Shown here piece by piece: positions 40,519-64,000 of a stretch of DNA of 64,000 bases (position 1 is its first letter; each line of letters begins with the position of its first letter). The notes beneath the pieces were generated by a model. That model ran no database searches and was not told the DNA's origin. It worked only from the letters and a program-made list of their open reading frames with translations. Origin of the DNA: Lachnospiraceae bacterium (GTDB lineage Bacteria; Bacillota; Clostridia; Lachnospirales; Lachnospiraceae); contig JAAWEK010000007.1 in assembly GCA_022794265.1 (NCBI GenBank), forward strand, positions 1-64,000. The letters are read 5' to 3'. Made by a program: the position numbers and the translations under genes.

Positions 40519-41103
40519 TTGAAAAAATATCTTAAAAAAACTATTGTAATTTTGCTTATATTAAGTGTGATATCAGTTTTATATTATTATCAGATACATG
40601 CACCCATTAAAATTGAAGGAGTAAAAGTAACTGTAATGCCATTGGATGATTCTGATCTTGATTCAATGAGACATCGTTATAATGAAGTTTATAATGGTGG
40701 GTTTGCAGCAGAATATTCTACATTATTGCGTTTAAATGGAAAATTTCCGGAAGGAGATGAAAATGATTTTCGGGTAATAAGTATTGATTTAAAAATAAAT
40801 AACAGAAGTATATTTTCTCAAAATGATATCCGGGGATATATTACAACTGGAAGTGAAGATTCAAGAATGTTGACTTGTACAGACAATCTGACTACTGATT
40901 TTGTCCGGTCATTTAAAAACGGGGAGGCTTGTCCGGTGTTTATGCATATGTATACCGGGGGACTGACAGATGAGGAAATTGTGGACTATGTACTCCAGCA
41001 GGAAATTAAACTATACTACAATAATGCATTGGGAAGCAAAACAGAAATCATTTCGTTAAAGGATATTCGACCGGTAGAAACAGATATCAGAAAAAAAGAA
41101 TGA
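40519..41103 (+). CDS. Single-pass exported protein linked to the ABC exporter
   Basis: A 194-residue protein with a basic start, one membrane span (about 8-25, TIVILLILSVISVLYYYQI) and an extracytoplasmic beta-rich domain I do not recognise. The start codon is TTG at 40519, fixed by AAAGGAG six bases upstream. The position before an ABC ATPase and FtsX-type permease is the same as for the 217-residue protein at 56655, and both end in a related motif (LKDIRPVE and LIDVRPYYDE). They are probably distant relatives serving the exporter, perhaps as substrate-binding or accessory protein. Confidence 0.7.
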   Translation: MKKYLKKTIVILLILSVISVLYYYQIHAPIKIEGVKVTVMPLDDSDLDSMRHRYNEVYNGGFAAEYSTLLRLNGKFPEGDENDFRVISIDLKINNRSIFSQNDIRGYITTGSEDSRMLTCTDNLTTDFVRSFKNGEACPVFMHMYTGGLTDEEIVDYVLQQEIKLYYNNALGSKTEIISLKDIRPVETDIRKKE

Positions 41104-41114
41104 AAAAAATAACA

Positions 41115-41180
41115 GGAAAGGAAAAATGCAGAATGTCCGTTGTTTCACTGGCGGGTCTGTGATTGGCATGGGTATGACAA
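41115..41180 (+). promoter_or_regulatory. Recurrent leader with mini-ORF, copy 2
   Basis: AGGAAAGGAAAA precedes ATG 41126, and the following bases repeat those at 12026 and 61043: TGCAGAATGTCC, TTTCACTGG, GGCATGGGTATGA, ATGAA. In this copy the mini-ORF ([17 protein letters not shown]) runs in frame into the ABC ATPase, so the peptide becomes an N-terminal extension. Confidence 0.55.
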
Positions 41181-41854
41181 TGAATCATAATATAATAGTT
41201 GCAAAAGATATCAGTAAATCCTATCAAAACGGTCAGGATAAAATTTCCGTTATTCATAGTTTAAGCCTGGAAGTTGCGGAGAAAGAGGTTATAGCTGTCG
41301 TAGGCCCTTCCGGTTCCGGAAAAAGCACATTATTAAATATCCTAAGCGGTATTGATACAGTGGATTCCGGCACCATATTTATGGAGGGGAAAGAGATTAC
41401 TGCCATGAAAAAGACACAATTAGCGGATTTACGGCTAAGCAGAATGGGATTTGTTTTTCAGACTTTTAATCTGCTTCATTCGTTAAATGTGTTTGAAAAT
41501 ATTATTTTGCCTGCGGTGGTTAAACATAAAAGCTATGACAGGGAGTATGTGGAGGAACTGATTCAGGTTTTGAATATTGGTCACAGAACTCGTTTTTTTC
41601 CGGAGCAGTTATCCATTGGGGAGCAGCAGCGGGTTGCCATTGCCAGGGCATTGATTAATAAGCCGGGAATCATTTTTGCAGATGAGCCTACAGGAAGTCT
41701 GGATTATGAGAACAGTAAAGCGGTAATGGAATTGTTGCGTAAGTGCAGTGAAAAGTTTTCCAATACTTTGATTTATGTGACACACGATATGGAAGTTGCC
41801 GGCATGGCAGATAAAATACTGGAGATTAACAGAGGAAAATATCTATGGAAATAA
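41126..41854 (+). CDS. ABC transporter ATPase (MacB/LolD type)
   Basis: A 242-residue ATPase for the adjacent FtsX-type permease. Walker A is GPSGSGKST, the Q-loop is in FVFQTFNLL, the signature is [15 protein letters not shown] (Ile in place of the usual Gly), Walker B is IIFADEPTG, and the H-loop is in VTHD. The best ribosome binding site is in front of ATG 41126, which adds about 17 residues ([17 protein letters not shown]) not seen in related ATPases; the family start is [17 protein letters not shown] at about 41177. The stop overlaps the permease start by 10 bases. Confidence 0.93.
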
Positions 41855-44250
41855 AAAAGAGTTCTATCCTGATGATAATGAAAAGCTATCTTCGCAAAAA
41901 TAAAATATGCAAAGCAATGGCAGCACTTTTTCTGCTATGCGGGCTGCTGGTTATGAGTCTTGCGGGTATGGTTTGCTTGAATATTTCCGTAAAGGTTGAA
42001 AACAGCAAAGCTATGTATGGGGAATATCAGATTGGATTTGAGGGATTATCGGCCGAAAAAACAGAGCAGATTAAGCAGGAGAAAGATTGCAAATCATACG
42101 CAGTATATTCTGAAAACGCATTTTGGAAGGAATCAGAATTTACCATTATCATTTCTTCGGATGAATCCTATCTTACACTGGGTGCTGTTCAACTCACAGA
42201 AGGAAGATTTCCATCAGACGGAGAAGAAATATTGTGCCAAAGAGAATATATCTATCGTAATGGATTTTCAGATGGAAATTATCTGGGACAGAGCGTGGAA
42301 GTAAACGGTAAAACATATAAAATCTGTGGTTTGATTGAGAACAACCTGACAGGGGATATGTCGGATACGATTATTAATATATTTATCCGAAAAATGCGAA
42401 AAGATGAGACATCTTTTTCAATGTTGATTAATACCGGTTCCCTGTCGTATAAAAGTAAAATGAATCGCATGATAGAAAAATATAATATCAAAGATTATTT
42501 TGAGAACCGGGCAGCAATGGGGCAGGCGGAGATTAGTAATCAGGGAAGATTGAAAGATACAAACGGTTTTCTGGTAATCATGCTTGTATGTGTACTGATA
42601 CTGATTTTGTTTATTACCTATATAATGCTGCGGTTTTATTATATGGGGCTGCAGAAACAAATGGCTGTTTATGAAAAGATAGGAATATCCTGGAAACAGA
42701 GTAATACAGGTTATGTAATGAGTGTCATACTGATACTGTCAGTTAGCGGACTGATTGATTTCCTTGGTTCGGCAGGTGTAATATCTTTTTTGATGCGGAG
42801 TTATGATACATCGGGACATATGGGGCTGTGTCTGACAGGAGCGGTAATCTGTGGTTTGCTGTTTATTATTCTGAATATTCTATCGTCTGTTATTGTTACA
42901 AAGAGAGCAAATCAGACACAAAAGAAAAAATGGATTGAAAATGCTTCTTCCAAATTGGATGCAGATGCAAATATATATATATATCTGGCAAAAAGAAATC
43001 GGAATATGAGCCATTGGAAGTACATTGTAATGTGTCTGATGGTAATTATCAGCAGTATTATTTGTGTTACCACCATTTATTTTATGAAATTAATCAGACA
43101 ATTGCAGGAGGTACCAAAGGACTATGAATATCTGGTAGAATTTATTCAGTATCAATATGATGCTGAAGTACAGGACGAATATAATGTAAAAAGTTTTGCA
43201 CAATTGAAGGAGGCCGGGGGAATGTCTGTTTTTCCTTCTTATGTGTACCATCGTAGCGTAAAGATAGAGAAAGCAGCTATTAGGGGAGAATTCAAAGAAT
43301 ATCTGTGTGAAAACAGTTCTTATAATAAAATGGAACTTGATAAAAACAGTCATTTAAAGTTTGACATGGAGGTTGTTTTTGTAGGGGTAGAGGAAGAGTC
43401 TGCAAAACTGCTAGGATTGAATTCGCAGAGTGTGGAGAATCTGGCAGATAACGAATGCATATTGATTCGTCAGGTTCGTGCATTTGAAGGAACTGGTTTT
43501 GATTGTGGATTTCAGAAAAATGATGAATTTACAGTAAGTGTAAAAAAGGATGATTTAACAGAAACAGGTGATTTAATATATGAAGATATGCCTATTAAAA
43601 TAAAAGAGGAAATAGAAAAATTGACCTTTGATTTTTATGATGAGGATATATATTATAAGCCGATTGTTCTTGTTAATTTAAATACATATAAAAAACTGGC
43701 ATTAAAATGGTATCCGATGAAAGTATATATTCAGCCTTTTGATATTACAGAAATGGAGTTATTCTCAATTCTTGGAAGAAATAATAATTATACAGTGAAA
43801 AATCTCAGACAGTGGAATGAAAGCGTACAGGAAATTATAAATACTTATACAGTAACCAGTATTCTGACAGCAGTATTGTTTATCGGACTGGTGATTTTAA
43901 ATACCGTTATTATGGTCTGTGTAAATTATCATCAGTTGAAAAATGAGATTACAATGCTGAGAGTAATTGGAATCAGGGATAAAAAAGCCTCGCTGGTACT
44001 AACCTATCATATAATAAAAATGATTTTCATCTGTCTGCCGACGGTATTTGTATGCTCTGTGATTACGACATTTCTTGCGAATCTGTATATGCGGGGGAGT
44101 ATTAGCGGTTTATATTATAAAATTCCATGGGGATTGCTGGGAGGAATAACAGCGGTTGTTTTCCTTTCAATTGTAAGTGTCATTCTGGTTATTACCAGGT
44201 TTACCGGCAGGAAGAATATACCAGGCTCATTAAGGCAATGGAATCAGTAG
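41845..44250 (+). CDS. ABC transporter permease (FtsX/MacB type, two FtsX domains)
   Basis: An 801-residue permease. TM1 is near residues 22-46, followed by an extracytoplasmic domain of about 190 residues, a first FtsX domain with three spans (about 240-355), a further span at about 393-415 (WKYIVMCLMVIISSIICVTTIYFM), a second large extracytoplasmic domain and a C-terminal FtsX domain with three spans (about 670-790). Such two-FtsX permeases with a MacB-type ATPase export peptides or act as mechanotransmitters for antimicrobial peptide sensing, rather than import. A paralogue is encoded at 58155 (compare LTEGRFPSDGEEI and LCDGRFPAGDNEI). No two-component system is next to it. Confidence 0.88.
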   Translation: MEIKKSSILMIMKSYLRKNKICKAMAALFLLCGLLVMSLAGMVCLNISVKVENSKAMYGEYQIGFEGLSAEKTEQIKQEKDCKSYAVYSENAFWKESEFTIIISSDESYLTLGAVQLTEGRFPSDGEEILCQREYIYRNGFSDGNYLGQSVEVNGKTYKICGLIENNLTGDMSDTIINIFIRKMRKDETSFSMLINTGSLSYKSKMNRMIEKYNIKDYFENRAAMGQAEISNQGRLKDTNGFLVIMLVCVLILILFITYIMLRFYYMGLQKQMAVYEKIGISWKQSNTGYVMSVILILSVSGLIDFLGSAGVISFLMRSYDTSGHMGLCLTGAVICGLLFIILNILSSVIVTKRANQTQKKKWIENASSKLDADANIYIYLAKRNRNMSHWKYIVMCLMVIISSIICVTTIYFMKLIRQLQEVPKDYEYLVEFIQYQYDAEVQDEYNVKSFAQLKEAGGMSVFPSYVYHRSVKIEKAAIRGEFKEYLCENSSYNKMELDKNSHLKFDMEVVFVGVEEESAKLLGLNSQSVENLADNECILIRQVRAFEGTGFDCGFQKNDEFTVSVKKDDLTETGDLIYEDMPIKIKEEIEKLTFDFYDEDIYYKPIVLVNLNTYKKLALKWYPMKVYIQPFDITEMELFSILGRNNNYTVKNLRQWNESVQEIINTYTVTSILTAVLFIGLVILNTVIMVCVNYHQLKNEITMLRVIGIRDKKASLVLTYHIIKMIFICLPTVFVCSVITTFLANLYMRGSISGLYYKIPWGLLGGITAVVFLSIVSVILVITRFTGRKNIPGSLRQWNQ

Positions 44251-47915: not shown

Positions 47916-48266
47916 GTAGTTGTTCGGGCAGAATTGCTGTGGGTGGATTGTAAATTGGCTAAACGGACGCAGCTATGTCCGGGAAAGGCGGTTCGAACGT
48001 TCCACTACAGGCAGATGGAAGTTCTAAGTGTTCTGCGGGAAGTGTTCGCAGACAGACGCTACCGGCGGATATTCGGCATCCTGCCTCAAATCCGCCTTCA
48101 ACTGACATCGTGTCAGTTGATAGCTGAAATCAAAACAGAATACTAAGAACTTCCAATCTGCCTTCCGTAGTCACATTCGAACCGCCTTTCCCGGACATAA
48201 CTGCTGTACGTTGGATAAATTTACAATACCGGATTGCAGTATTTTGTCTGTTGAATAGAGGCTGAA
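47884..48266. repeat. Giant palindromic element, unit I
   Basis: The arms 47966-48035 and 48136-48207 are near-perfect inverted repeats of about 70 bases (for example ATGTCCGGGAAAGGCGGTTC and its complement), and weaker complementarity reaches out to the trpS terminator on one side and 48266 on the other. The central 100 bases hold two smaller stems: GGCGGAT/ATCCGCC (48064-48070, 48090-48096) and CAACTGACA/TGTCAGTTG (48099-48107, 48111-48119). No coding frame is convincing. Unit II is a related structure in the opposite orientation. Confidence 0.85.
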
Positions 48267-48280
48267 AAATTACTTATTCT

Positions 48281-48590
48281 GTAAATTTGGCAGAGAACAG
48301 CAGAAGCGGAAACCTTCGGGCGCAAGCTGGCGACTTTCGGAAAAAGTCTGAAAGTTCTTAGTGTTCTGCTATAATAAACAGCCATTGCCTGACACGAGGT
48401 CAGGCAAAGTCAGAAGTGAGGCATGGACGCCGAATTTCTGACGGTAGCGTCCGCCTTCCGATATCTGTCGCAGAACACTTAGAACTTTCCGGCTTTTGAA
48501 GAGGAGCCGGCTTGTGCCCGAAGGTTTCCGATTCTGCGTCCTGCTGGCCAAATAAACAGCAATCCACCTGCAGCAATTCCGCCCGAATTG
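48281..48590. repeat. Giant palindromic element, unit II (inverted relative to unit I)
   Basis: The arms 48281-48369 and 48469-48557 are inverted repeats of nearly 90 bases with scattered mismatches (shared GCGGAAACCTTCGGGC-type blocks). The centre, read on the minus strand, aligns with the centre of unit I: GTTCTAAGTGTTCTG, GACGCTACCG, a TGCCTCA stretch, then a 9-bp stem around CTCGT (TTGCCTGAC/GTCAGGCAA, 48385-48393 and 48399-48407). Outer sequence at 48558-48590 is an inverted copy of 47926-47950 (TTCGGGC, AATTGCTG, GGTGGATTG). This and unit I fill the 713-base gap between trpS and 48591. Confidence 0.85.
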
Positions 48591-55120: not shown

Positions 55121-55189
55121 GGGCTGGTTTTGGAACAGTTACAGACCAAAAGTGTGATTCAGAAATTAATAGTAATCTGCGGAAGTATA

Positions 55190-55338
55190 AGAAATAGGAT
55201 TAGATGGGTTATACATAAGATAAGGTATAAATAGAAGGAATAGGGTTAAAAAATAGAATTTATAATAGAAAAATGCCTGTGTTTGTATGATTTCATATTT
55301 GTAAGAAATGAATTGTTCAAATGCAGGCGTTTTTATTT
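55190..55338 (+). promoter_or_regulatory. Attenuator-like leader, copy 1 of 4
   Basis: The conserved box GATGGGTTATACATAAGAT (55203-55221, followed by AAGGT) is followed by a terminator hairpin: GCCTGTGTTTG (55275-55285) pairs with CAAATGCAGGC (55318-55328), then G and a T-rich run. The box can pair with GTATGAT (55286 region) in the 5' arm of the hairpin using two G-T pairs, so terminator and box-hairpin pairing exclude each other. No -35/-10 pair of the type seen in the other copies is present, so this copy may have lost its promoter. Behind it lies a decayed gene. Confidence 0.7.
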
Positions 55339-55379
55339 TGAGAAATATTGGTGGTAGGTGGAGAGATGGAGGAAAAGAG

Positions 55380-55477
55380 ATGAGTAAAGTAATATTTAAA
55401 AAAAGGATTTTGAAATTGAAGTGGGTCCGTATGGTGATGAAAGTTATTTGGATGAGTATATTGTGAAAAAAAATTAG
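55380..55477 (+). pseudogene. Remnant of a single-pass protein gene (internal deletion and frameshift)
   Basis: GGAGGAAAAGAG precedes ATG and a start, MSKVIFKKRIL, that parallels the gene at 56655 (MHKVILKKRIL). After about 12 codons the frame is lost, and in another frame the sequence continues as EVGPYGDESYLDEYIVKKN and stop, matching the C-terminus of the same protein (DVRPYYDESYLSDYIVKKN). So about 190 codons of the middle are missing. The first frame stops at 55466. Confidence 0.75.
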
Positions 55478-55529
55478 AATATTATATTACAGACAGGTTA
55501 TATGCATTTTTTAAAATTTCCAAATAATA

Positions 55530-55741
55530 TTGACAGGTTATGGTAAAATATGGTAATGTTAACTTACTTAATAATGATTTGTGGAAGTTTAATTAATAAG
55601 ACCAAATGGGTTATACAAAAGATAAGGTGTGTAAATAGAAGAAATGGGTTTACATAAAAGAGTTTTATAAGATGAATATGCCTACATTTGTATAATTTCG
55701 GGTAAAGTTAATGGAATATACAAATGCAGGCGTTTTTATTT
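55530..55741 (+). promoter_or_regulatory. Attenuator-like leader with promoter, copy 2 of 4
   Basis: TTGACA (55530-55535) and TGGTAATGT (-10 TAATGT at 55554-55559) are 18 bases apart; AAAATTTCCAA lies just upstream of the -35. The box AAATGGGTTATACAAAAGAT (55604-55623) is followed by the hairpin GCCTACATTTG (55680-55690) / CAAATGCAGGC (55721-55731) with a T-rich tail. TTATACAAA in the box is complementary to TTTGTATAA in the hairpin's 5' arm. It heads the Amidase_6-exporter operon. With copy 1 and the remnant it accounts for the 772 bases between 55121 and 55892. Confidence 0.8.
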
Positions 55742-55892
55742 TGAATTACATTGGTCTTAGAGAAATCATTAGGAAGAATTTATGGGAAAGGAGGAAAAAT
55801 AGAAAGACTAAAAAAGAAATGGATTCAAATAAAATCATAAAGGGAAATAAGGTAAAACACAAAAGAAAAATGAACAAAGAAAGAGGGAAAAT

Positions 55893-56519
55893 ATGAATTA
55901 TAAAAAAATAATGGCAATGGGATTAATTGTCTCAACCATAACTATGACCAGTCATATGAAGCTATATGCTTCTTATGATGCAAATGCGGCAGTAGATTAT
56001 GCGAATAGATATGCAGAAACACCTAATAATTGGGATTATCATTATTTTTCGGGTGTAGATTGTACTAATTTTGTTTCTCAATGTGCAATAGCAGGCGGTG
56101 CGACCATGAGAAACAAAGCGCCAAACTGTTATTTAAAGCGTATTGTAATTAAAGATGATGAAGCATGGTATCATTTATATGATGGATATCATTATCTGGC
56201 TACGCAGTCATGGACGGTTGTGGATGAGTTTTATCAATATTGGAAAAAACATTCCGGTGCTACATATAGTGCAAATTGTACAATTGAACAGTTAAAATTA
56301 ATTGTTAAAAAAGGTGATATAATTCAATGCGCACGGGGCAGTAAGTTTTCGCATAGTGTTATTTGTACAGGGAATAGTAATTCAAAGAATTCTTATGACT
56401 TGAGCAAAATAACTTTGGCATATCATAGTAATAATAAGAAAAATATAACATTATCTGAATTTAATAATAATTTTGATAAAACAAACGCCGTAACTTATAG
56501 AATAATAAGATTTAAATAA
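55893..56519 (+). CDS. Secreted Amidase_6-domain hydrolase
   Basis: A 208-residue exported protein. The signal peptide (about 1-26) is followed at once by the domain: YDANAAVDYANRYAETPNNWDYHYFSGVDCTNFVSQCAIAGGA, with the presumed catalytic Cys57 in DCTNFVSQC and His154 in KFSHSVIC, and AYHSNN near the end. This is the pattern of Pfam Amidase_6, a putative NlpC/P60-like thiol amidase acting outside the cell, probably on peptides or peptidoglycan. GAGGG lies shortly before ATG 55893. It is the first gene after leader copy 2 and is followed by a single-pass protein and an ABC exporter. Confidence 0.8.
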   Translation: MNYKKIMAMGLIVSTITMTSHMKLYASYDANAAVDYANRYAETPNNWDYHYFSGVDCTNFVSQCAIAGGATMRNKAPNCYLKRIVIKDDEAWYHLYDGYHYLATQSWTVVDEFYQYWKKHSGATYSANCTIEQLKLIVKKGDIIQCARGSKFSHSVICTGNSNSKNSYDLSKITLAYHSNNKKNITLSEFNNNFDKTNAVTYRIIRFK

Positions 56520-56589
56520 GATAAGTATGACGATTATTGTACAAGGATAATCAAAAAAAGTTTTGTGTTGATTATTAGGTCATAGTTCT

Positions 56590-56631
56590 AAATGATTGAA
56601 TAAATTGTTTTAACAATTTATTCAATCATTT
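56590..56631. repeat. 42-bp perfect palindrome between two operon genes
   Basis: The 20-base arm AAATGATTGAATAAATTGTT (56590-56609) and its exact complement (56612-56631) are separated by two T. No T-run follows, so it is not a standard terminator. As RNA it would form a long stem just upstream of the ribosome binding site of the 56655 gene and could set message stability or differential expression. Confidence 0.85.
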
Positions 56632-56654
56632 AAGATAGAGAAAAGGAGGAAAAG

Positions 56655-57308
56655 ATGCATAAAGTAATATTAAAAAAAAGAATTTTAGTAACAGGAATTT
56701 TGTTAATAACATTATTTGTATTTTATTATAGCTTTTATAGGAAAAAAGAAAAGGAGGATATTTATCCTGATATAATTAATTTTAATATTGCAGAATGTGA
56801 GATTGATTTGGAAAGACTGGCCGATTTAGAAAGTGACACATTTTGGCAGAATAAGTCTGATTATATCAAATGTCCAGAATTTGATTATAAAGATACAAAA
56901 GAATTGGGGGATTTTTTTACGGCATGCTGTAGTGTTGGTTTTAATAAGAAATTACATGGGAAGATTACAGAAGTAAGTATGGAGTGGGATATTCCAGAAG
57001 AGGGAAAAAATAATTTTATATATTATTGGATTTGTAATGATCAACCGTTTGAGGGTATGTATTTAGAAGAGAACGGAGATGGAAACTGCAGGATGATTTG
57101 GAAAGGAGTAACCCGTAACAAAACATATGAAGAAATAAGACAATTGGCAAAGAAAGTAGTTGTTCATCTGAATATTCAATATGTTGATGGAACAAAAGAG
57201 ACAAAGAAAATAACTTTTGGAGATGAGCTGATTGATGTTAGACCGTATTATGATGAAAGTTATTTGTCTGATTATATTGTAAAAAAGAATAACACAACAG
57301 AGGAATAA
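56655..57308 (+). CDS. Single-pass exported protein linked to the ABC exporter
   Basis: A 217-residue protein with a basic N-terminus, one membrane span (about 9-27, ILVTGILLITLFVFYYSFY) and an extracytoplasmic beta-rich domain without known motif. AAAAGGAGG is upstream of ATG. Two decayed relatives flank it (55380-55477 and 57318-57440), which shows the gene has been duplicated locally. It sits between the Amidase_6 gene and the ABC ATPase, like the 194-residue protein at 40519 in the distant cassette. A substrate-delivery, immunity or accessory role for the exporter is inference only. Confidence 0.7.
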   Translation: MHKVILKKRILVTGILLITLFVFYYSFYRKKEKEDIYPDIINFNIAECEIDLERLADLESDTFWQNKSDYIKCPEFDYKDTKELGDFFTACCSVGFNKKLHGKITEVSMEWDIPEEGKNNFIYYWICNDQPFEGMYLEENGDGNCRMIWKGVTRNKTYEEIRQLAKKVVVHLNIQYVDGTKETKKITFGDELIDVRPYYDESYLSDYIVKKNNTTEE

Positions 57309-57317
57309 CATAGATAC

Positions 57318-57440
57318 AATTATTCCATTGATGTAGAAAAACTGCTGGATTTAGACAGTGATTAGATTTAGATAGAAGATGAACATTTTGTAAAAACAGA
57401 AGAACAGGAAAATGGTATTTCAGAAACAGGTATAGATTGA
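57318..57440 (+). pseudogene. Fragment of a second single-pass protein gene
   Basis: Reading from 57318, NYSIDVEKLLDLDSD then stop parallels EIDLERLADLESD in the intact gene just upstream; after two stops the same frame continues IEDEHFVKTEEQENGISETGID to 57440. No start or ribosome binding site is present. It looks like the leftover of a tandem copy. Confidence 0.5.
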
Positions 57441-57469
57441 AATAAGAATAAATAAGGAGCTTAAGAGGA

Positions 57470-58150
57470 ATGGCAGACACGTTTATTTTAACAGCAAAAG
57501 ATTTACATAAAGAATATGACATGGGAAAATCAAAAGAGCAGGCATTGGTACAGGTATCATTGGAAATACGGGAAGGAGAAATTATTTCCATTATTGGAGA
57601 ATCCGGCTCCGGAAAGTCTACATTACTGAATCTGTTAAGTACAATCGACAGACCGACTGCAGGGACAGTAGAATACAATGGACGCAGGATTGATAATCTG
57701 AATCAGAAAAAGGCATCACGATTACGGTTAGAGGAATTTGGCTTTGTATTTCAAAAGTATAATCTCATGCCATCTTTAAATATATATGACAATATCATAC
57801 TGCCCGTAGCATTAATGAACCAAAAACCGGACAAAGAGCATTTAACGGAAATCTGTAAAAGACTTGGCATCGAAGAACAATTGAGAAAAATGCCAGGACA
57901 GCTTTCCGGTGGGGAGCAGCAGAGGGTGGCAATTGCAAGAGCATTAGTAAACCGGCCGAAAGTAGTTTTTGCGGATGAGCCTACCGGGAATCTTGACAGC
58001 AAAAACGGAAACGAAGTATTTCGGATTCTGCTGGATTGTGCCAGAACAGAAGGAAAGACGGTTATTTTTGTTACACATAATATGGAACTGGCAGGAATGG
58101 CAGACCGACAATATACATTACAGGACGGTGAAATAGTTGATAAGATATAA
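57470..58150 (+). CDS. ABC transporter ATPase (MacB/LolD type)
   Basis: A 226-residue ATPase. Walker A is GESGSGKST, the Q-loop is in FVFQKYNLMPS, the signature is [15 protein letters not shown], Walker B is VVFADEPTG, and the H-loop is in VTHN. It energises the FtsX-type permease that starts a few bases after its stop. It is a paralogue of the ATPase at 41126, but with the regular LSGGE signature. Confidence 0.95.
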   Translation: MADTFILTAKDLHKEYDMGKSKEQALVQVSLEIREGEIISIIGESGSGKSTLLNLLSTIDRPTAGTVEYNGRRIDNLNQKKASRLRLEEFGFVFQKYNLMPSLNIYDNIILPVALMNQKPDKEHLTEICKRLGIEEQLRKMPGQLSGGEQQRVAIARALVNRPKVVFADEPTGNLDSKNGNEVFRILLDCARTEGKTVIFVTHNMELAGMADRQYTLQDGEIVDKI

Positions 58151-58154
58151 TAGG

Positions 58155-60686
58155 ATGATAATTCAGACCCTGAAGGGGAAAAAACGTTTTTTATATGTGT
58201 GTTTCTTTATTTCCATGATAGCATTTTCATTATTTTCTGCATATTCCATGTTTTATGAAACAAAAGAACAGAACCGGGTGGATTTTGTCAGGCAGGAATT
58301 TGGGGATTATCATGCAGCTTTTTATTCCGTCGATTCTGTGGAAAAAGATTTGATAGCCGAAAATGATAATATAGATTTCATAATTGAAACACCAATGGAT
58401 GCCTGTATGCTGGGAGAGAATACTTCCATATTGATACAGTATATGCTGGAAGATGAACTGAAGCATACCGGGAGCCAGTTATGTGATGGAAGATTTCCGG
58501 CCGGTGACAATGAAATTGCCGTTGAAAAATGGTTTATGCTGCAGCAGGGATATACCAGTGATAAAATGCTGGGAGCGGAATTAGTTTGCACGGATTCAAA
58601 GGGAAATCAGAAAACGTATCGGGTTACAGGACTGATTTGTGAAAAAATGTCCTATAATGCCTCCATGTCCAGTCATTTTTCTTATCCTCTGATGATAATG
58701 AATAAAGCCTCTGGTGTGACGGACACTTTGGAATATCGAAATCTTTATATTAAATATAAAGATACGGAACGATTATTAAATGAAATTGAATGGGATATCC
58801 GGCCGTTAGAGCGTTATCGTGATAAAAAATATGGCGGGGAATCTTTCGGACAGGGTGTGCAGAACAATGGTGAAGACTCGAATTATGTGATGGAAGAGAA
58901 TACGGCAAATAAGATTGATTATACTGTGAATGAAACATATACTTATGTATTGGGCAGTGATCCTCTGGCAAGGGCGGAAATTCGAAACAGGCAAAAGATA
59001 AATCATATTTTATGGATTGTGTTATTAGTTTTTTTGCTGTTTTCTATGAATAATGTTATTAATATATGTATATCCAAATGGAGTGGAGTTATTAAAATAC
59101 ATAAACAGATTGGTACAGATATGATATCAATAATATGGCATATGATTTCTCTGATTACCTTGTATGCGGTATTAGGTGAAATACTGGGGATTGCTTTTGG
59201 TTATGGATTTATCCGGATTATAAAAGATATATTTATGAATACGGCTGTAACCACCGGGGTACAGATTCCGTGGAAGATACTGCTGGCATTTATGGCAGTC
59301 AGCATAGCAATAATAGTAGTTATTATGAATTTAAAACTTCATGCGCTATACAGGAAAACATCATATGAGATACAGAATTCTTCCAGTGGAACATTCCATA
59401 AAGGAAAAAGAGTAAAAATGTATGAAGATTTGTTTGGAAGAATAGTACCTAATTCTGTTCGAATGGCATTACGGAATATGTGGTTTTATAAAATACGAAA
59501 AGTTATGATGATTCTGTGTATTTCCATATCGCTGGTATTACTTTATTTAATTTATTTTCAGATGAAAACGGAAAATAGAGGGGAAGTGGATAACAATTAC
59601 AATTATACGTACAGAATTCGAATGCAGAGTCGGTTTTCCATCCAGGATGAGGAAGAACGGGATATTGTATTCCGTCTTTATCACCAGGTATTAGATTTAT
59701 GTGAAAGCTATGATTGTAACCCTCAGTTTGCCGATTTTGTTTTTGAGGAAATTCCGTTGGATAAATCATTGATTTCCGATTCTTATAGAAAGCAGATGGA
59801 ACAGAGTGTTACCGGGCATACGAATCTGGCGGACAGCCGTTCATTTATATTGATTCATGCCGGGGTTATGGCATGCTCTCAGGAGGTGATTCAGGAATTA
59901 TGCCGGGAAAACAATCTGGATATCGATTATTTAGAAGACAATCAGTGTCTGATGCTGGGACGAACGGTAAACCGGGAAGGAACTTACTCCGGAATCTTGA
60001 ATTCTGCCGTAGGAAATAAATATAAGTTTGCGCCTTTTGATTTGGAGAAGGAATATGAACTGGAAGTGGTGGGGATGGTAAAAGATATACCAGTGTATCC
60101 AGAAGTAATGGAGAATTGTGTTTGTATGATTATTTCTAAGGAGGCATATCTGAAATTCCATGAAGAGGATTATTTTGAGATGTTTTTTCTAAAAGATGTT
60201 CCGAAGGAGCTGATTGAGGAGATTGAACATGTGATAAGCGGTACAAAATATATGATTTTAACCAATCAGGAGGACGAAATAGCCGTTGCCAAACGGAATC
60301 GTCAGGTCAATAATATAATGTATCTGGTATTTTTCCTGATGTGCAATGTAGCAATGTTCTTGAATATAATTCTTATACATTATTATGAATCCATTCTGCG
60401 GGATTATGAGTTTTCACTTCATGGAGCGGTGGGAATCAGTAAAGGTGTCAGTTACAGAATATGTATATATGAGATGGTTATTCTGTATGCACTGGGAATT
60501 CTGTTGGGAATTACAGGTATATCCGCATGGAAAGAGCATGTCAGCGATTCTGTCGTGACAGTAGCAGGAAATAGTATGGCGAATGGCATTTGGTTAGGAA
60601 TGTTGGGAATCTGCCTTTTCATATCTTTGATTATCAGCTATATCAGGATAAGAAAGGCCTCAATATTGGAATATTATTTGGATTAA
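58155..60686 (+). CDS. ABC transporter permease (FtsX/MacB type, two FtsX domains)
   Basis: An 843-residue permease. TM1 lies near 13-33 (FLYVCFFISMIAFSLFSAYSM), followed by a large extracytoplasmic domain, a first FtsX domain with spans around 285-400, a span at about 450-470 (VMMILCISISLVLLYLIYF), a second extracytoplasmic domain and a C-terminal FtsX domain with three spans (about 715-835). It is the paralogue of the permease at 41845. I took ATG 58155, four bases after the ATPase stop; TTG 58137 inside the ATPase gene is the alternative. It probably exports a peptide or moves envelope-active molecules; substrate unknown. Confidence 0.87.
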   Translation: MIIQTLKGKKRFLYVCFFISMIAFSLFSAYSMFYETKEQNRVDFVRQEFGDYHAAFYSVDSVEKDLIAENDNIDFIIETPMDACMLGENTSILIQYMLEDELKHTGSQLCDGRFPAGDNEIAVEKWFMLQQGYTSDKMLGAELVCTDSKGNQKTYRVTGLICEKMSYNASMSSHFSYPLMIMNKASGVTDTLEYRNLYIKYKDTERLLNEIEWDIRPLERYRDKKYGGESFGQGVQNNGEDSNYVMEENTANKIDYTVNETYTYVLGSDPLARAEIRNRQKINHILWIVLLVFLLFSMNNVINICISKWSGVIKIHKQIGTDMISIIWHMISLITLYAVLGEILGIAFGYGFIRIIKDIFMNTAVTTGVQIPWKILLAFMAVSIAIIVVIMNLKLHALYRKTSYEIQNSSSGTFHKGKRVKMYEDLFGRIVPNSVRMALRNMWFYKIRKVMMILCISISLVLLYLIYFQMKTENRGEVDNNYNYTYRIRMQSRFSIQDEEERDIVFRLYHQVLDLCESYDCNPQFADFVFEEIPLDKSLISDSYRKQMEQSVTGHTNLADSRSFILIHAGVMACSQEVIQELCRENNLDIDYLEDNQCLMLGRTVNREGTYSGILNSAVGNKYKFAPFDLEKEYELEVVGMVKDIPVYPEVMENCVCMIISKEAYLKFHEEDYFEMFFLKDVPKELIEEIEHVISGTKYMILTNQEDEIAVAKRNRQVNNIMYLVFFLMCNVAMFLNIILIHYYESILRDYEFSLHGAVGISKGVSYRICIYEMVILYALGILLGITGISAWKEHVSDSVVTVAGNSMANGIWLGMLGICLFISLIISYIRIRKASILEYYLD

Positions 60687-60784
60687 ATCTGTCTGATTTA
60701 CAGGTGTTGCAAATATGAGTTGTGTAGAAAATATAAGAAAAATCTATACGGATTAACTTTATGGTAAAAATTTCCAAAAAAATA

Positions 60785-61008
60785 TTGACAATATAAAGTT
60801 TTGTATGGTAATATTGAACTAGATTAAAAATAATCTGTGGATTGTGGTAGTTTAATTGATAAGATTAAATGGGTTATACAAAAGATAAGGTGAGAAAAAA
60901 GTACATAGAGAAATAAAGGGTACAAAAGATAAAAATATAGTATTAGTGGGCCTACATTTGTATAATTTCAGGTTTTATAAATGAAATATACAAATGTAGG
61001 CTTTTTTT
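60785..61008 (+). promoter_or_regulatory. Attenuator-like leader with promoter, copy 3 of 4
   Basis: TTGACA (60785-60790) and TGGTAATAT (-10 TAATAT at 60809-60814) are 18 bases apart, with AAAATTTCCAA upstream. The box AAATGGGTTATACAAAAGAT (60867-60886, then AAGGT) is followed by the hairpin GCCTACATTTGTATA (60950-60964) / ATACAAATGTAGGC (60988-61001) and seven T. TTATACAAA of the box is fully complementary to TTTGTATAA in the hairpin's 5' arm. This is the most perfect copy. It takes up the 398-base gap before 61085. Confidence 0.82.
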
Positions 61009-61030
61009 GTTGATTGGTTTTTAATTATAA

Positions 61031-61100
61031 AAGGAAGGAAGTTTGCAAAATATCCCTTTTTCAACCGGATGATTAGCGATATGCATGGGTATAAAAATGA
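61031..61100 (+). promoter_or_regulatory. Recurrent leader with mini-ORF, copy 3
   Basis: AAGGAAGG precedes TTG 61043, which opens a nine-codon frame (MQNIPFSTG, stop at 61072). The sequence follows the same order as at 12026 and 41126: TGCAAAATATCC, TTTCAACCGG, GCATGGGTAT, ATGAA. The main gene begins 12 to 24 bases after the mini-ORF stop without a site of its own, which suggests reinitiation. Confidence 0.55.
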
Positions 61101-61693
61101 AAAAGAAAAAAATAGTGTTGGCGGTAGCAGGTATAGTTATAGTACTTATTATATCAGTCATTATATATTTTAAAATTGTGGAAAAAAAACAAACTGGCTA
61201 TGTATGGGTAGGAGATAGTTATGATGAAGCAGTACAGATTCTGACAGAAAACTTTAGTACAGACATAGTTTTATATGGTGAAAAGCTGGAATTTAGGGAA
61301 AATGTAGTATACAGACACATCAATACTCTTAGTAATGAGACATTAACTACAGATAAGGAATATGAATTTATTATAATTAATGATTTGGATGGTACAGTGG
61401 AACTGACAGAAAAAGATATAGAAGTGTTAAAAAAGTATGTATTAAATGGAAATGCAAATCTATACTATATAGGTACAAATAATTATGGATTATTGAAAGA
61501 CCATGGGTTTACCATATATGACAGCTCCACGGGGGAATGGGGATTCACATGTGAGCATTTATATGGAGAACTGATATACGGAGGAGGTCTTTGGAGCAGT
61601 TATGATAGAAGACAATCGGGTGAAAAAGAGGCAAGGAACTTATGTATGGTGATATTATTAAATTTTGTTCATTACTTAGAAGAATGCAATTAA
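61085..61693 (+). CDS. Single-pass exported protein of the third cassette
   Basis: A 202-residue protein with a Lys-rich N-terminus, one membrane span (about 9-29, VLAVAGIVIVLIISVIIYFKI) and an extracytoplasmic domain (YVWVGDSYDEAVQILTENF... EFIIINDLDGTVELTEKDIEVLKKYVLNGNANLYYIGTN). That part alternates beta strands and helices, as in a Rossmann-like or GATase-like fold, and suggests a sugar- or peptide-binding domain; no family is certain. ATG 61085 or 61097 may be the start; neither has its own ribosome binding site. It lies behind attenuator copy 3 and before the remains of an ABC ATPase. Confidence 0.65.
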   Translation: MGIKMKKKKIVLAVAGIVIVLIISVIIYFKIVEKKQTGYVWVGDSYDEAVQILTENFSTDIVLYGEKLEFRENVVYRHINTLSNETLTTDKEYEFIIINDLDGTVELTEKDIEVLKKYVLNGNANLYYIGTNNYGLLKDHGFTIYDSSTGEWGFTCEHLYGELIYGGGLWSSYDRRQSGEKEARNLCMVILLNFVHYLEECN

Positions 61694-61748
61694 CATAATA
61701 ATTGGGAGACGGAAATGAAGAAAAGTAATAATTACTCTAAAATATTTT

Positions 61749-61845
61749 GGTATTGAAAAGTTAGCCAATAATAAGTTATGAGGCGGACAAAGAGTTGCTA
61801 TTGCAAGAACAATTGTGAAGTATCACTGTAAGCCGGATAAACAAA
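61749..61845 (+). pseudogene. Remnant of an ABC transporter ATPase
   Basis: Reading from 61749: GIEKLANNKL, stop, GGQRVAIARTIVKYHCKPDK. This is the signature region of a MacB-type ATPase (compare [33 protein letters not shown] at 57470), with the Ser of LSGGQ changed to a stop and two residues lost. Walker A, Walker B and the permease are absent. A 13-codon frame (MKKSNNYSKIFWY) precedes it at 61715. The remaining bases to 62000 show nothing else. Confidence 0.7.
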
Positions 61846-62000
61846 ATTTATATGATTCAATTACTTGAAAATAAATTTCGGCTGTTATTTATTAATTGTT
61901 ATGTGTCTAAAAACTATATGGTCAGTATTCTAAATTTTTTAAAAATTATAAGAACAATATTAAAACGATTAAATTTTTTGGTAAAAATATCCAAGTATTA

Positions 62001-62221
62001 TTGACAATATATGGTTTTGCATGGTAACATTTAACTATATAAAAATAAATATGTATTGTGGTAGTTTAAATTATAAGATAAGCTGGGTTATACAAAGAAT
62101 TAAGATGGGTAAAAGTACATACAAAAATAAAAGGTACTGAAGAGAAAAATATAAAATAAGTAGGCCTGTGGTTGTATAATTTCATCTTTCTAAGTGAAAT
62201 GTGCAAGCGCAGGCATTTTTT
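62001..62221 (+). promoter_or_regulatory. Attenuator-like leader with promoter, copy 4 of 4
   Basis: TTGACA (62001-62006) and TGGTAACAT (-10 TAACAT at 62025-62030) are 18 bases apart, with AAAATATCCAA upstream. The box CTGGGTTATACAAAG (62083-62097) is followed by the hairpin GCCTGTGGTTG (62164-62174) / CAAGCGCAGGC (62204-62214), then A and six T. TTATACAA of the box is complementary to TTGTATAA in the 5' arm. Arm sequences differ from copies 2 and 3, yet pairing is kept by changes on both sides and G-T pairs. It heads the C39-like hydrolase gene. Confidence 0.8.
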
Positions 62222-62308: not shown

Positions 62309-63361
62309 ATGAAAAAAATTTATAAACGAATTGTTGCTACAATAATAATAATTTGTCTTAGCAATTGGTGTATATTACAAAATTATACCTTAAATTATGC
62401 AAATGAAGATGATATAAAACAATTAGAAGATGAAATGGAAGACATAGTAGAATATTTTTATCCCTATATAACACTTAAAGTTGAAAAAATTACTCCAATT
62501 TACAAGTTGGATAAAATATGCGAATATGCAATTGATATATCTGCTGATAATGTAAATTATGGTTATTTTATAGTAAATGATAGTTATGATATTACTCGGT
62601 TTATAATTAAACAAAATAGTGATGGATTTATAGAATCAAATTTTGATATTTTATTGGATAAGAAAATATTAAAAGTAGACATTTTTGAGTATCAATATAG
62701 TGATGAAGATATTGTACTGGGTTCTTATGATGATATATTTAATATTTGTTATGATGATTTATCTATGATGGATGCTGATCATAATTTAAAATGTCAAAAA
62801 ACGCTAAAAAAATATTATGCATTTGGGGAAAATTTTATTACTGATAAACTTGGAATGGATTATGGCTGTGCAATAGTTGCTATGTTAAATGTCGCTGCAC
62901 AAAATCAGTTATTTAGAGTTCGAAATGCTAGTACGAGTTCATATGATATTAGTAATATTAAAAGTGAATATAAAAGAATATGGGATATAGCAAGACCAAT
63001 AGATGGATTTATTGCAGCTGATAAAATGGGAAGTATTATGTCTGCATATGTAAAAAAATATCATAATAATTTTACTTTGACATATAAAAATTATAGTAAT
63101 CCACCAATTGGTTTTTTTACAAATGCAATTGATGCCAATTATTCAGCTATTCTTGGCGTGGTAGGAGATGTAAGCGGAGCTAAATCAGGACATGCCTTTA
63201 GTGTTATTGGATATTTAAATTATCAACATAGATATAAAAATCACAATAAGACATTTTTAAAAGTAACTACTGGTTGGGGGTATGATAATGAAATAGGATA
63301 TATAGATTATAATAATCTTAATGTACGTTCAACTTATGGGGTTAAATATATTTTCAAATAA
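62309..63361 (+). CDS. Secreted papain/C39-like cysteine hydrolase
   Basis: A 350-residue exported protein. The signal peptide (about 1-28) is followed by an N-terminal region of about 150 residues, acidic and beta-rich, which may be a propeptide, and a C-terminal thiol-peptidase-like domain: Cys187 in MDYGCAIVAMLNVAAQ, His295 in SGHAFSVIGYLN, and TTGWGYDNEIGYIDY in the place of the third residue. The layout resembles the C39_2/papain-like group, also streptopain-like zymogens. Target unknown. The start at 62309 follows AAAGAGG; upstream in-frame codons would run into the leader terminator. It is strikingly AT-rich. It parallels the Amidase_6 gene of the second cassette. Confidence 0.7.
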   Translation: MKKIYKRIVATIIIICLSNWCILQNYTLNYANEDDIKQLEDEMEDIVEYFYPYITLKVEKITPIYKLDKICEYAIDISADNVNYGYFIVNDSYDITRFIIKQNSDGFIESNFDILLDKKILKVDIFEYQYSDEDIVLGSYDDIFNICYDDLSMMDADHNLKCQKTLKKYYAFGENFITDKLGMDYGCAIVAMLNVAAQNQLFRVRNASTSSYDISNIKSEYKRIWDIARPIDGFIAADKMGSIMSAYVKKYHNNFTLTYKNYSNPPIGFFTNAIDANYSAILGVVGDVSGAKSGHAFSVIGYLNYQHRYKNHNKTFLKVTTGWGYDNEIGYIDYNNLNVRSTYGVKYIFK

Positions 63362-63401
63362 TAGAATAAATTTTTTTAAAATTATTAAGGAGCGAGAAGG
63401 T

Positions 63402-63845
63402 ATGAAAAAAAAAGTTTTATTCACGGGTTTGATTTTAATCTCAATCATAATAGTAATCGGAATTATCCTGATTCCAACAAAAACAAAACTGAATCTGAAA
63501 TCTGAAAAAATTGTATGTATACGGATAGAAAATTACAACAAAAGCATTGATATTACAGAACCATCGGAAATAGAGAAAATCATTGGTTCACTCAATACAC
63601 TTTCGTATAAGAAAAAGCATCCGTATAAAAAATATTTAGATATCCTGACCGGTAAAGATAATGGCTTTATCAGCGAAAATATATATAGGATTTCATTGTT
63701 TACGGAAAAACGGGAACACTATGTTTATCGGGATGGATGGAAACGTATTTTACTAAGTATGAATGGAACGGAGCTTTGTATCGATTCTGTGGATTATCGA
63801 CTGACAAGAAAAAATACATTAAATTTTCGAAGCTATTTGAAATAA
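63402..63845 (+). CDS. Single-pass exported protein of the fourth cassette
   Basis: A 147-residue protein with a Lys-rich start, a membrane span (about 5-25, VLFTGLILISIIIVIGIILI) and a small extracytoplasmic domain (KIVCIRIENYNKSIDITEPSEIEKIIGSLNTLSYKK...) of a kind often seen in anchored or lipoprotein-like proteins of this group; no known function. AAGGAGCGAGAAGG precedes ATG 63402, which fixes the start against longer upstream frames. It occupies the same place behind a secreted thiol hydrolase as the protein at 56655. Confidence 0.7.
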   Translation: MKKKVLFTGLILISIIIVIGIILIPTKTKLNLKSEKIVCIRIENYNKSIDITEPSEIEKIIGSLNTLSYKKKHPYKKYLDILTGKDNGFISENIYRISLFTEKREHYVYRDGWKRILLSMNGTELCIDSVDYRLTRKNTLNFRSYLK

Positions 63846-63875
63846 TAATTAACAAAAGAGAAAGGGTTATAAATT

Positions 63876-64000
63876 ATGGATTCATTAACCAAAATCATAA
63901 GTCATGCGTACAAAAATTCGCTGTTGTATCAGCAAAAGAAACCGGAGTGGTATGAGGAATCAAGAGAGCCGGATATTACGGAATTTCCGATTATTCAGAA
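63876..64000 (+). CDS. Start of a possible adenylate-forming (PaaK/CapK-like) enzyme, partial
   Basis: Only the first 41 codons are in the window, so the frame runs off the right edge. MDSLTKIISHAYKNSLLYQQKKPEWYEES...DITEFPIIQ has the rhythm of the N-terminus of phenylacetate-CoA ligase/CapK-like proteins (HAYKNSPFY..., then a D-I-x-x-x-P-I/L stretch). AAAGGG is nine bases before ATG. If right, it would activate a carboxylic acid, and may belong to the fourth cassette. The call rests on a short sequence. Confidence 0.45.
   Translation, partial: MDSLTKIISHAYKNSLLYQQKKPEWYEESREPDITEFPIIQ

What the first reader, a model, noticed from the sequence alone, without database searches (positions are those of the whole stretch)
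55190..62221. Family of four RNA attenuator-like leaders with a built-in antiterminator box
Seen: at 55.2, 55.6, 60.9 and 62.1 kb a box containing GGGTTATACA is followed 50-80 bases later by an intrinsic terminator that begins GCCT and ends AGGC. In each copy the box (TTATACAAA) is complementary to the 5' arm of the terminator (TTTGTATAA). In copy 1 the hairpin differs (GTATGAT) and the box still pairs with G-T pairs; in copy 4 the stem bases differ on both sides yet pair. Three copies have the promoter TTGACA-18-TGGTAAnnT. Inference: mutually exclusive terminator and antiterminator, hence a shared signal controlling secretion/export genes. It does not carry T-box, RAT/LicT or known riboswitch hallmarks that I can recognise.
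Basis: partly seen in the sequence, partly recalled or inferred. Interest (0 to 1): 0.85.

Follow-up and report, generated by a model that had tools for sequence, protein, structure and literature searches.

The report
Peptide-coding leaders with built-in attenuator
Four related copies of a short bacterial leader sit in one gene cluster, three of them before secretion- or biosynthesis-type genes; each can fold into a stop signal or a competing shape, and the supposed RNA box lies inside a tiny conserved reading frame, which points to control by the ribosome rather than to a new riboswitch.

Summary
The four leaders are real: box GGGTTATACA at 55206, 55608, 60871, 62085, and a GCCT...AGGC terminator starting 69-79 nt further on. 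They are homologous. Copies 2-4 have a TTGACA-18-TGGTAA promoter and unrelated downstream genes; copy 1 has no promoter and a decayed gene. The box is the most arm-complementary and (tied) most conserved of 98 12-mers, but single-copy complementarity is weak and covariation is not beyond chance. No relative was found: 0 of 8 other genus genomes, 0 of 298 other family genomes, one chance hit in 391 other order genomes.

pN/pS is 0.22-0.59 in all six pairs; conservative substitution beats a random-placement null (p 0.0005-0.017, box excluded). No Shine-Dalgarno is visible.

Best reading: leader-peptide attenuator whose codons double as antiterminator strand (0.40). Main rival: small cationic-peptide genes with leaky terminators (0.30). 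New member of a known kind; signal unknown.

The parts
55166..55338 (+). leader copy 1: no promoter like the others, GTA where copies 2-4 have a start codon, box 55206, hairpin 55275-55328; probably a decayed copy
55361..55474 (+). internally deleted remnant of the 56655 gene behind copy 1
   Evidence: blastn 55361-55411/56638-56686 (84%) and 55415-55474/57231-57290 (82%); stops
55530..55559 (+). copy 2 promoter TTGACA-18-TAATGT with TGG before the -10
55574..55657 (+). copy 2 short ORF, 27 aa, MICGSLINKTKWVIQKIRCVNRRNGFT
55608..55619 (+). copy 2 box core GGGTTATACAAA = antiterminator strand, inside the ORF
55680..55741 (+). copy 2 intrinsic terminator
55893..56519 (+). first gene after copy 2, Amidase_6 protein with an N-terminal hydrophobic stretch
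   Evidence: Pfam PF12671 5e-23
57470..60686 (+). ABC ATPase and FtsX-type permease further downstream of copy 2
60785..60814 (+). copy 3 promoter TTGACA-18-TAATAT with TGG before the -10
60837..60893 (+). copy 3 short ORF (GTG start), 18 aa, (M/V)DCGSLIDKIKWVIQKIR
60871..60882 (+). copy 3 box core
60950..61008 (+). copy 3 intrinsic terminator
61097..61693 (+). gene after copy 3, small protein with an N-terminal hydrophobic stretch, no family (an ATG at 61085 is also in frame)
   Evidence: distant homologues in 3 of 143 other relatives
62001..62030 (+). copy 4 promoter TTGACA-18-TAACAT with TGG before the -10
62051..62140 (+). copy 4 short ORF, 29 aa, MYCGSLNYKISWVIQRIKMGKSTYKNKRY
62085..62096 (+). 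copy 4 box core
62164..62221 (+). copy 4 intrinsic terminator
62309..63361 (+). gene after copy 4, protein with an N-terminal hydrophobic stretch and no Pfam family over its cut-off (peptidase-like only from recall), head of a carrier-protein cluster that continues past the window

Best explanation
Each intact copy (2, 3, 4) is a promoter followed by a leader-peptide transcription attenuator. A short ORF of 18-29 codons begins just behind the transcription start. Its codons W-V-I-Q (box GGGUUAUACAAA) are also the antiterminator strand and can pair with the 5' arm of an intrinsic terminator (UUUGUAUAAUUU); a second short helix (AGG with CCU) extends the pairing in copies 1-3. When ribosomes run through codons 8 to about 20 they cover the box, the terminator folds and transcription stops before the gene. 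When translation does not start, or stalls in about the first seven codons, the box, 34 nt from the start codon, is free, pairs with the arm, and RNA polymerase reads on into the export or biosynthesis genes. Shown by computation: the cassettes, the two alternative pairings, the conserved open frame, the 34-nt spacing. Inferred: that the ORF is translated, that the ribosome is the switch, the direction of the response. The signal is unknown.
For: Frame open over 16 shared codons in 4 of 4 copies, start codon at the same place in 3 of 4. pN/pS 0.22-0.59 in all six pairs; conservative-substitution null p 0.0005-0.0167 with the box core excluded, 0.0011-0.0097 without (four reference copies). Start to box 34 nt in all three. 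Box core: 1 change against 8.8 expected from the rest of the upstream leader, gap columns counted as a change (Poisson 0.0015). Against the ORF's own rate outside the core (19 changes in 36 nt; my arithmetic) 6.3 are expected, p about 0.013. Most complementary and tied most conserved 12-mer of 98. Pre-terminator folds hold the antiterminator in 4 of 4. In copies 1-3 the terminator overtakes only 0, 0 and 5 nt before the hairpin is complete. 5' arm more constrained than 3' arm in the dual-use segment. One cassette before unrelated genes, homology ending at or within about 15 nt behind the terminator.
Against: No Shine-Dalgarno sequence before the ORF; the 5' UTR is only 11-19 nt with the starts assumed, and copy 3 starts with GTG. 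No run of regulatory codons. Stop codon not conserved (36, 9 and 42 nt behind the box core in c2, c3, c4); in c2 and c4 a ribosome on the last codons is already past the box. Codon positions changed 3, 8 and 9 times, not the classic pattern; one reverse-strand frame scores 311 against 358 with only 1 stop. Absence of stops alone is not telling (p 0.06-0.30 with the box excluded). The column-permutation test (0 of 5000) is inflated because it breaks runs of identical columns. No covariation in the antiterminator (0 both-side changes in 15 pairs). Arm pairing upstream is matched by 15, 1, 4 and 62 of 100 shuffles, take-over as late by 27, 3, 9 and 41 of 100 (c1-c4), so c1 and c4 give no support. 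W-V-I-Q may be kept for the peptide's sake. Four paralogues, one genome, no expression data.
Confidence: 0.4

Rival explanations
1. The short ORF is the product: a family of small cationic peptides (signal, antimicrobial or similar), each gene with its own promoter and terminator. The terminator is merely leaky so that peptide exceeds the downstream exporter, amidase or biosynthetic genes. The box-arm complementarity is incidental.
For: Peptide-level selection, K and R exchanged for each other, net charge +2 to +7. Terminator starts 22 and 23 nt behind the stop codon in copies 2 and 4 (56 in copy 3). An ABC exporter lies in the copy 2 operon and a carrier-protein/AMP-ligase cluster behind copy 4. 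Single-copy complementarity is weak.
Against: No Shine-Dalgarno sequence; no export signal or double-glycine leader seen by eye; helical moment not above shuffles (p 0.21-0.32). Does not explain why the most complementary 12-mer is among the most conserved nor the arm asymmetry. No homologous peptide: 0 plasmid records for the copy 4 peptide; for the copy 2 peptide 30 phage records at E 2 or worse, taken as noise.
Confidence: 0.3
2. A pure RNA attenuator: a protein, a metabolite or another RNA binds the upstream block and box and decides between antiterminator and terminator; the open frame is incidental.
For: All structural evidence of the best explanation; the conserved GGG pairs only by three G-U pairs, so it may be read by something else; no SD for the ORF.
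Against: Coding signal and in-phase start codons. No Rfam match in these leaders at gathering; at E up to 10 the best are microRNA hairpin models at E 0.008 and 0.019, far under their gathering scores. The upstream block plus box has no consensus fold (0 pairs).
Confidence: 0.17
3. Sibling small RNAs: promoter, about 180-190 nt, strong terminator; the box is a seed for trans targets and read-through into the next gene is minor.
For: Four related units with strong terminators in one region.
Against: Outside the leaders the 12-nt box core occurs once in the genome, in contig C8, on what looks by eye like the coding strand, so no perfect sense target. Coding signal. No promoter between terminator and gene in copies 2-4 among the 60 of 61 sites listed, in a scan that finds no more than chance.
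Confidence: 0.07

Closest known systems
vmlR leader of Bacillus subtilis (PMC9226507; abstract start in a listing and passages seen)
   Same: Short upstream ORF, antiterminator and intrinsic terminator that exclude each other; ribosome stalling on the ORF decides.
   Different: There the ORF is three codons in an anti-antiterminator hairpin and has a Shine-Dalgarno sequence; here the ORF is 18-29 codons, has none, and its own codons are the antiterminator strand. Sequence relation not tested.
Attenuator regulons before non-homologous genes (Naville and Gautheret 2010, PMC2965389; abstract, passages and one section seen)
   Same: Related 5' terminator regions before non-orthologous genes, taken there as possible regulons with a common signal.
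   Different: The regulon clusters described there occur in several species, or derive from insertion sequences; here four copies in one region of one genome. Transposases were not searched for; none is among the families.
LoaP-dependent leaders (dfn/mln of Bacillus velezensis, PMC12691694; search listing and passages)
   Same: Leader terminator controlling natural-product operons in a Gram-positive.
   Different: LoaP needs a UNCG hairpin and the LoaP protein; neither found here.
T-box, RAT/LicT and Rfam riboswitches (recalled)
   Same: Terminator/antiterminator switching.
   Different: No Rfam match in these leaders at gathering and nothing of meaning below it.

Membership tests
intrinsic-terminator transcription attenuator (general kind) | intrinsic terminator between promoter and gene | tested here: met
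   by sequence, copies 2-4; copy 1 has no such promoter
intrinsic-terminator transcription attenuator (general kind) | mutually exclusive antiterminator that uses a terminator arm | tested here: inconclusive
   predicted in 4 of 4, conserved, but no covariation and single-copy strength near chance for c1 and c4
ribosome-controlled leader-peptide attenuator | short translated ORF overlapping the switch strand | tested here: inconclusive
   ORF with signs of purifying selection; translation itself not testable here; no SD
ribosome-controlled leader-peptide attenuator | regulated read-through when the ribosome stalls | not testable with these tools
   needs experiment
T-box / Rfam-catalogued riboswitch | match to the family covariance model | tested here: not met
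   window at gathering: only two TwoAYGGAY and one LSU rRNA end, none in the leaders; two leader stretches at E up to 10: 12 matches, all under their gathering scores
LoaP leader | LoaP protein in the genome | tested here: not met
   1 match, 102 bits, under the cut-off of 125; its neighbours look like secE, rplK and rplA (recalled), so it is taken as nusG; genome 91% complete
LoaP leader | UNCG tetraloop hairpin in the leader | tested here: not met
   TNCG string in 2 of 4 copies, no such tetraloop hairpin in the folds, by eye
RAT/LicT, ANTAR, PyrR, TRAP-type protein antitermination | binding element and protein | not tested
   elements not recognised by eye; proteins not searched

The most novel reading that the evidence does not exclude
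The conserved M.CGSL..K..WVIQ.I peptide is a new sensor (arrest) peptide: the product of the neighbouring carrier-protein cluster, or a similar translation inhibitor, stalls ribosomes in its first codons, frees the dual-coded box and switches on the export and biosynthesis operons together as a self-protection regulon.
Probability: 0.07. Interest if true: 0.75.

Novelty: new member of a known kind. Interest (0 to 1): 0.4.

Why it matters
It would be a compact attenuator in which one 12-nt stretch serves as codons and as antiterminator, reused before three unrelated operons in one genome. If right it predicts which genes form one regulon and offers a handle on an uncharacterised carrier-protein biosynthetic cluster. 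It also shows that an apparent RNA box can be part of a conserved peptide, a check worth making before calling orphan riboswitches.

Tried and rejected
Rejected: Rfam riboswitch or T-box; LoaP leader; a consensus hairpin in the upstream block (0 pairs); a perfect sense target for the box elsewhere in the genome.

Searches for relatives that led nowhere. Box with up to 2 mismatches in 60 genomes: 10 places, 3 own; the 7 others lack the box-hairpin layout, judged by eye. Box plus arm pattern: 5 hits in GTDB contigs and 2 in viral contigs, none with the hairpin by eye. Exact 20-mer in viral contigs: 0. Leader c2 DNA against plasmids and phages: no match. Model R1 in genus, family and order; the one foreign hit (G572, E 2.8e-4 in one genome of 392) is GC-rich sequence without such a leader, by eye. 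Model R2 in 397 family genomes at E up to 0.05: 37 foreign matches in 36 genomes, about 20 being expected. 29 of the 37 were given to and 27 were long enough to display; 6 of 27 have some terminator-like hairpin within 200 nt, but none has the layout by eye (closest is L063, a box-like string directly followed by a short unrelated hairpin). R1 on loci around homologues of downstream genes: best E 0.16; R2 on five stretches: none. The copy 4 gene has homologues in 3 of 8 other genus genomes, without this leader by eye and by R1. The 56655 gene has none in 143 other relatives. Peptide against plasmids and phages: none beyond noise. PAM30 tblastn over held loci: 26 hits printed, nearly all in loci that R2 had picked on the same DNA, the rest noise.

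In the own genome one search lists 13 R1 matches at E up to 10: the 4 leaders, 4 on the opposite strand of the same hairpins, and 5 weak ones elsewhere (E 0.05-4.2) that I did not inspect; one search lists 6 weak R2 matches (E 0.28 and worse), not inspected.

Literature: searches brought no paper that, by listing, describes this leader; 63 looked for the box string itself and listed 20 papers, none with a title on this subject.
Full report
What is there. Four leaders lie on the + strand: 55166-55338 (c1), 55530-55741 (c2), 60785-61008 (c3) and 62001-62221 (c4). c2-c4 have TTGACA, 18 nt and TG-G-TAATGT/TAATAT/TAACAT. For folding, transcription was assumed to start 4 nt behind the -10 hexamer (55563, 60818, 62034); c1's start (55160) is arbitrary. 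Each copy has the box GGGTTATACA (12-nt core GGGTTATACAAA in c2-c4) and, 69-79 nt from box start, a long hairpin GCCT...AGGC with a T-tract. c1 has no such promoter; it begins about 45 nt behind the stop of what looks like gyrA (recalled, no call) and is followed by an internally deleted remnant of the 56655 gene.

More than chance? The copies are clearly homologous (blastn E 4e-55, 8e-33, 6e-28), and the homology ends at or within about 15 nt behind the terminators: c2, c3 and c4 stand before an Amidase_6 gene, a small protein of no family and a protein that heads a carrier-protein cluster. The cassette is therefore a reused control region rather than part of one gene family. Between the c1/c2 and c3/c4 pairs the spacer is 0.48-0.52 and the loop 0.38-0.67 identical, the 24-column box 0.67-0.96, the 5' arm 0.76-0.95, the 3' arm with T-tract 0.71-0.83; the upstream leader as a whole is only 0.48-0.61, with one well-kept stretch (alignment columns 71-80: 0.83 over all copies).

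Antiterminator. Transcripts ending behind the 5' arm fold with the box on that arm in 4 of 4. RNAalifold on the truncated alignment gives the 12 pairs, AGG-CCU and one more pair, with a covariation term of +0.12, that is none. Partition functions put the take-over by the terminator 0, 0, 5 and 8 nt before hairpin completion in c1-c4. Controls are mixed. Duplex energy is reached by 219, 61, 84 and 170 of 1000 shuffles and the Watson-Crick run by 737, 38, 31 and 111 of 1000. Upstream pairing of the arm is reached by 15, 1, 4 and 62 of 100, a take-over as late by 27, 3, 9 and 41 of 100. So c2 and c3 are better than most shuffles, c1 and c4 are not. Across copies the box is the single most complementary of 98 12-mers and one of three tied for most conserved, with 1 change where 8.8 are expected (Poisson 0.0015, gap columns counted as a change). 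The dual-use part of the 5' arm changed 2 times against 7 on the 3' arm, the reverse (6 against 2) in the stem base (Fisher 0.057). Covariation gives no support: 0 both-side changes in 15 antiterminator pairs; 2 of 19 terminator pairs, a level reached by 140 of 500 shuffles. The copies are related by duplication, so these tests are not independent.

The missed part. Listing short frames over the box showed that upstream block and box are one reading frame: MICGSLINKTKWVIQKIRCVNRRNGFT (c2), (M/V)DCGSLIDKIKWVIQKIR (c3, GTG), MYCGSLNYKISWVIQRIKMGKSTYKNKRY (c4), and in c1 the same frame with GTA at the start position...CGSIRNRIRWVIHKIRYK; c1's frame is open back to 55121, so another start there is possible. 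The frame is open over all 16 shared codons in the four copies; the other two forward frames hold 8 and 12 stops over the four copies, and one reverse frame scores 311 against 358 with 1 stop. pN/pS is 0.22-0.59 in all six pairs. Placing the observed substitutions at random gives as conservative a peptide in 0.05-1.7% of trials when the box core is excluded and 0.1-1.0% otherwise, depending on the reference copy; the mere absence of stops is expected in 6-30% with the box excluded. Changes by codon position are 3, 8 and 9, so much of the signal is conservative exchange (K/R, I/L) rather than third positions. No Shine-Dalgarno sequence precedes the starts. The box core begins at the second base of the W codon and runs through V, I and Q into the next codon; its distance from the start codon is 34 nt in c2-c4.

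How it most likely works. A box inside the ORF, complementary to the terminator arm, is the layout of ribosome-controlled attenuation: a ribosome on codons 8 to about 20 hides the box (15 nt either side assumed), so the terminator folds; no initiation, or a stall in codons 1-7, leaves it free. In c2 and c4, but not c3, a ribosome on the last codons is already past the box. I put this reading at 0.40. The nearest rival (0.30) is that the peptide itself is the product and the terminator is leaky; the coding evidence supports both, the box-arm coincidence only the first. A pure RNA switch (0.17) and sibling small RNAs (0.07) remain possible.

Distribution. In the own genome only the four copies match strongly. 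None in 8 other genomes of the genus, none in 298 others of the family with R1, and in 391 others of the order one chance hit. These sets overlap, and the larger searches used strict filters and scored 5-14 candidates per genome, so diverged relatives can have been missed. R2 over 397 family genomes gave 37 weak foreign matches in 36 genomes, about 20 being expected; of 29 given to, 27 could be displayed and none has the layout by eye. Three of 8 other genus genomes have a homologue of the c4 gene with no such leader. The peptide was searched by protein comparison only in plasmids, phages and held loci, not in whole relatives.

Known or new. Related attenuators before non-homologous genes are a known kind (PMC2965389), and short-ORF control of a terminator is documented (vmlR, PMC9226507). 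No Rfam family matches the leaders at gathering; LoaP was not found. The listed literature searches brought no description of this leader; the library lacks most subscription papers.

Noticed in passing
48003-48169 (-) and 48335-48504 (+): Two TwoAYGGAY RNAs (Rfam RF01731, 112 and 111 bits) in opposite orientation 165 nt apart.
   Followed up: no
61743-61832: Stretch resembling the ABC ATPase signature region (GGQRVAIAR) with a stop, between copies 3 and 4; may be a remnant of a decayed operon copy.
   Followed up: partly
62309-64000 and L024:1-5639: Cluster behind copy 4: protein with N-terminal hydrophobic stretch, small protein of no family, AMP-ligase (PaaK-like; ATG at 63876, in frame with L024:36), acyl carrier protein, BtrH_N protein, class II synthetase-like amino acid:carrier-protein ligase (the NCBIfam ligase names are under their cut-offs). 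In G004 and G006 the copy 4 homologue is followed by a similar small protein, in G006 also by an AMP-ligase-like gene, by eye.
   Followed up: partly
40519-44250: A second ATPase plus permease pair with a preceding small protein, similar in layout to 56655-60686 (by eye); no leader of this family found there.
   Followed up: no
55275-55328: The copy 1 hairpin may serve as terminator of the gene ending at 55120, an old attenuator reused as a 3' terminator (inference).
   Followed up: no
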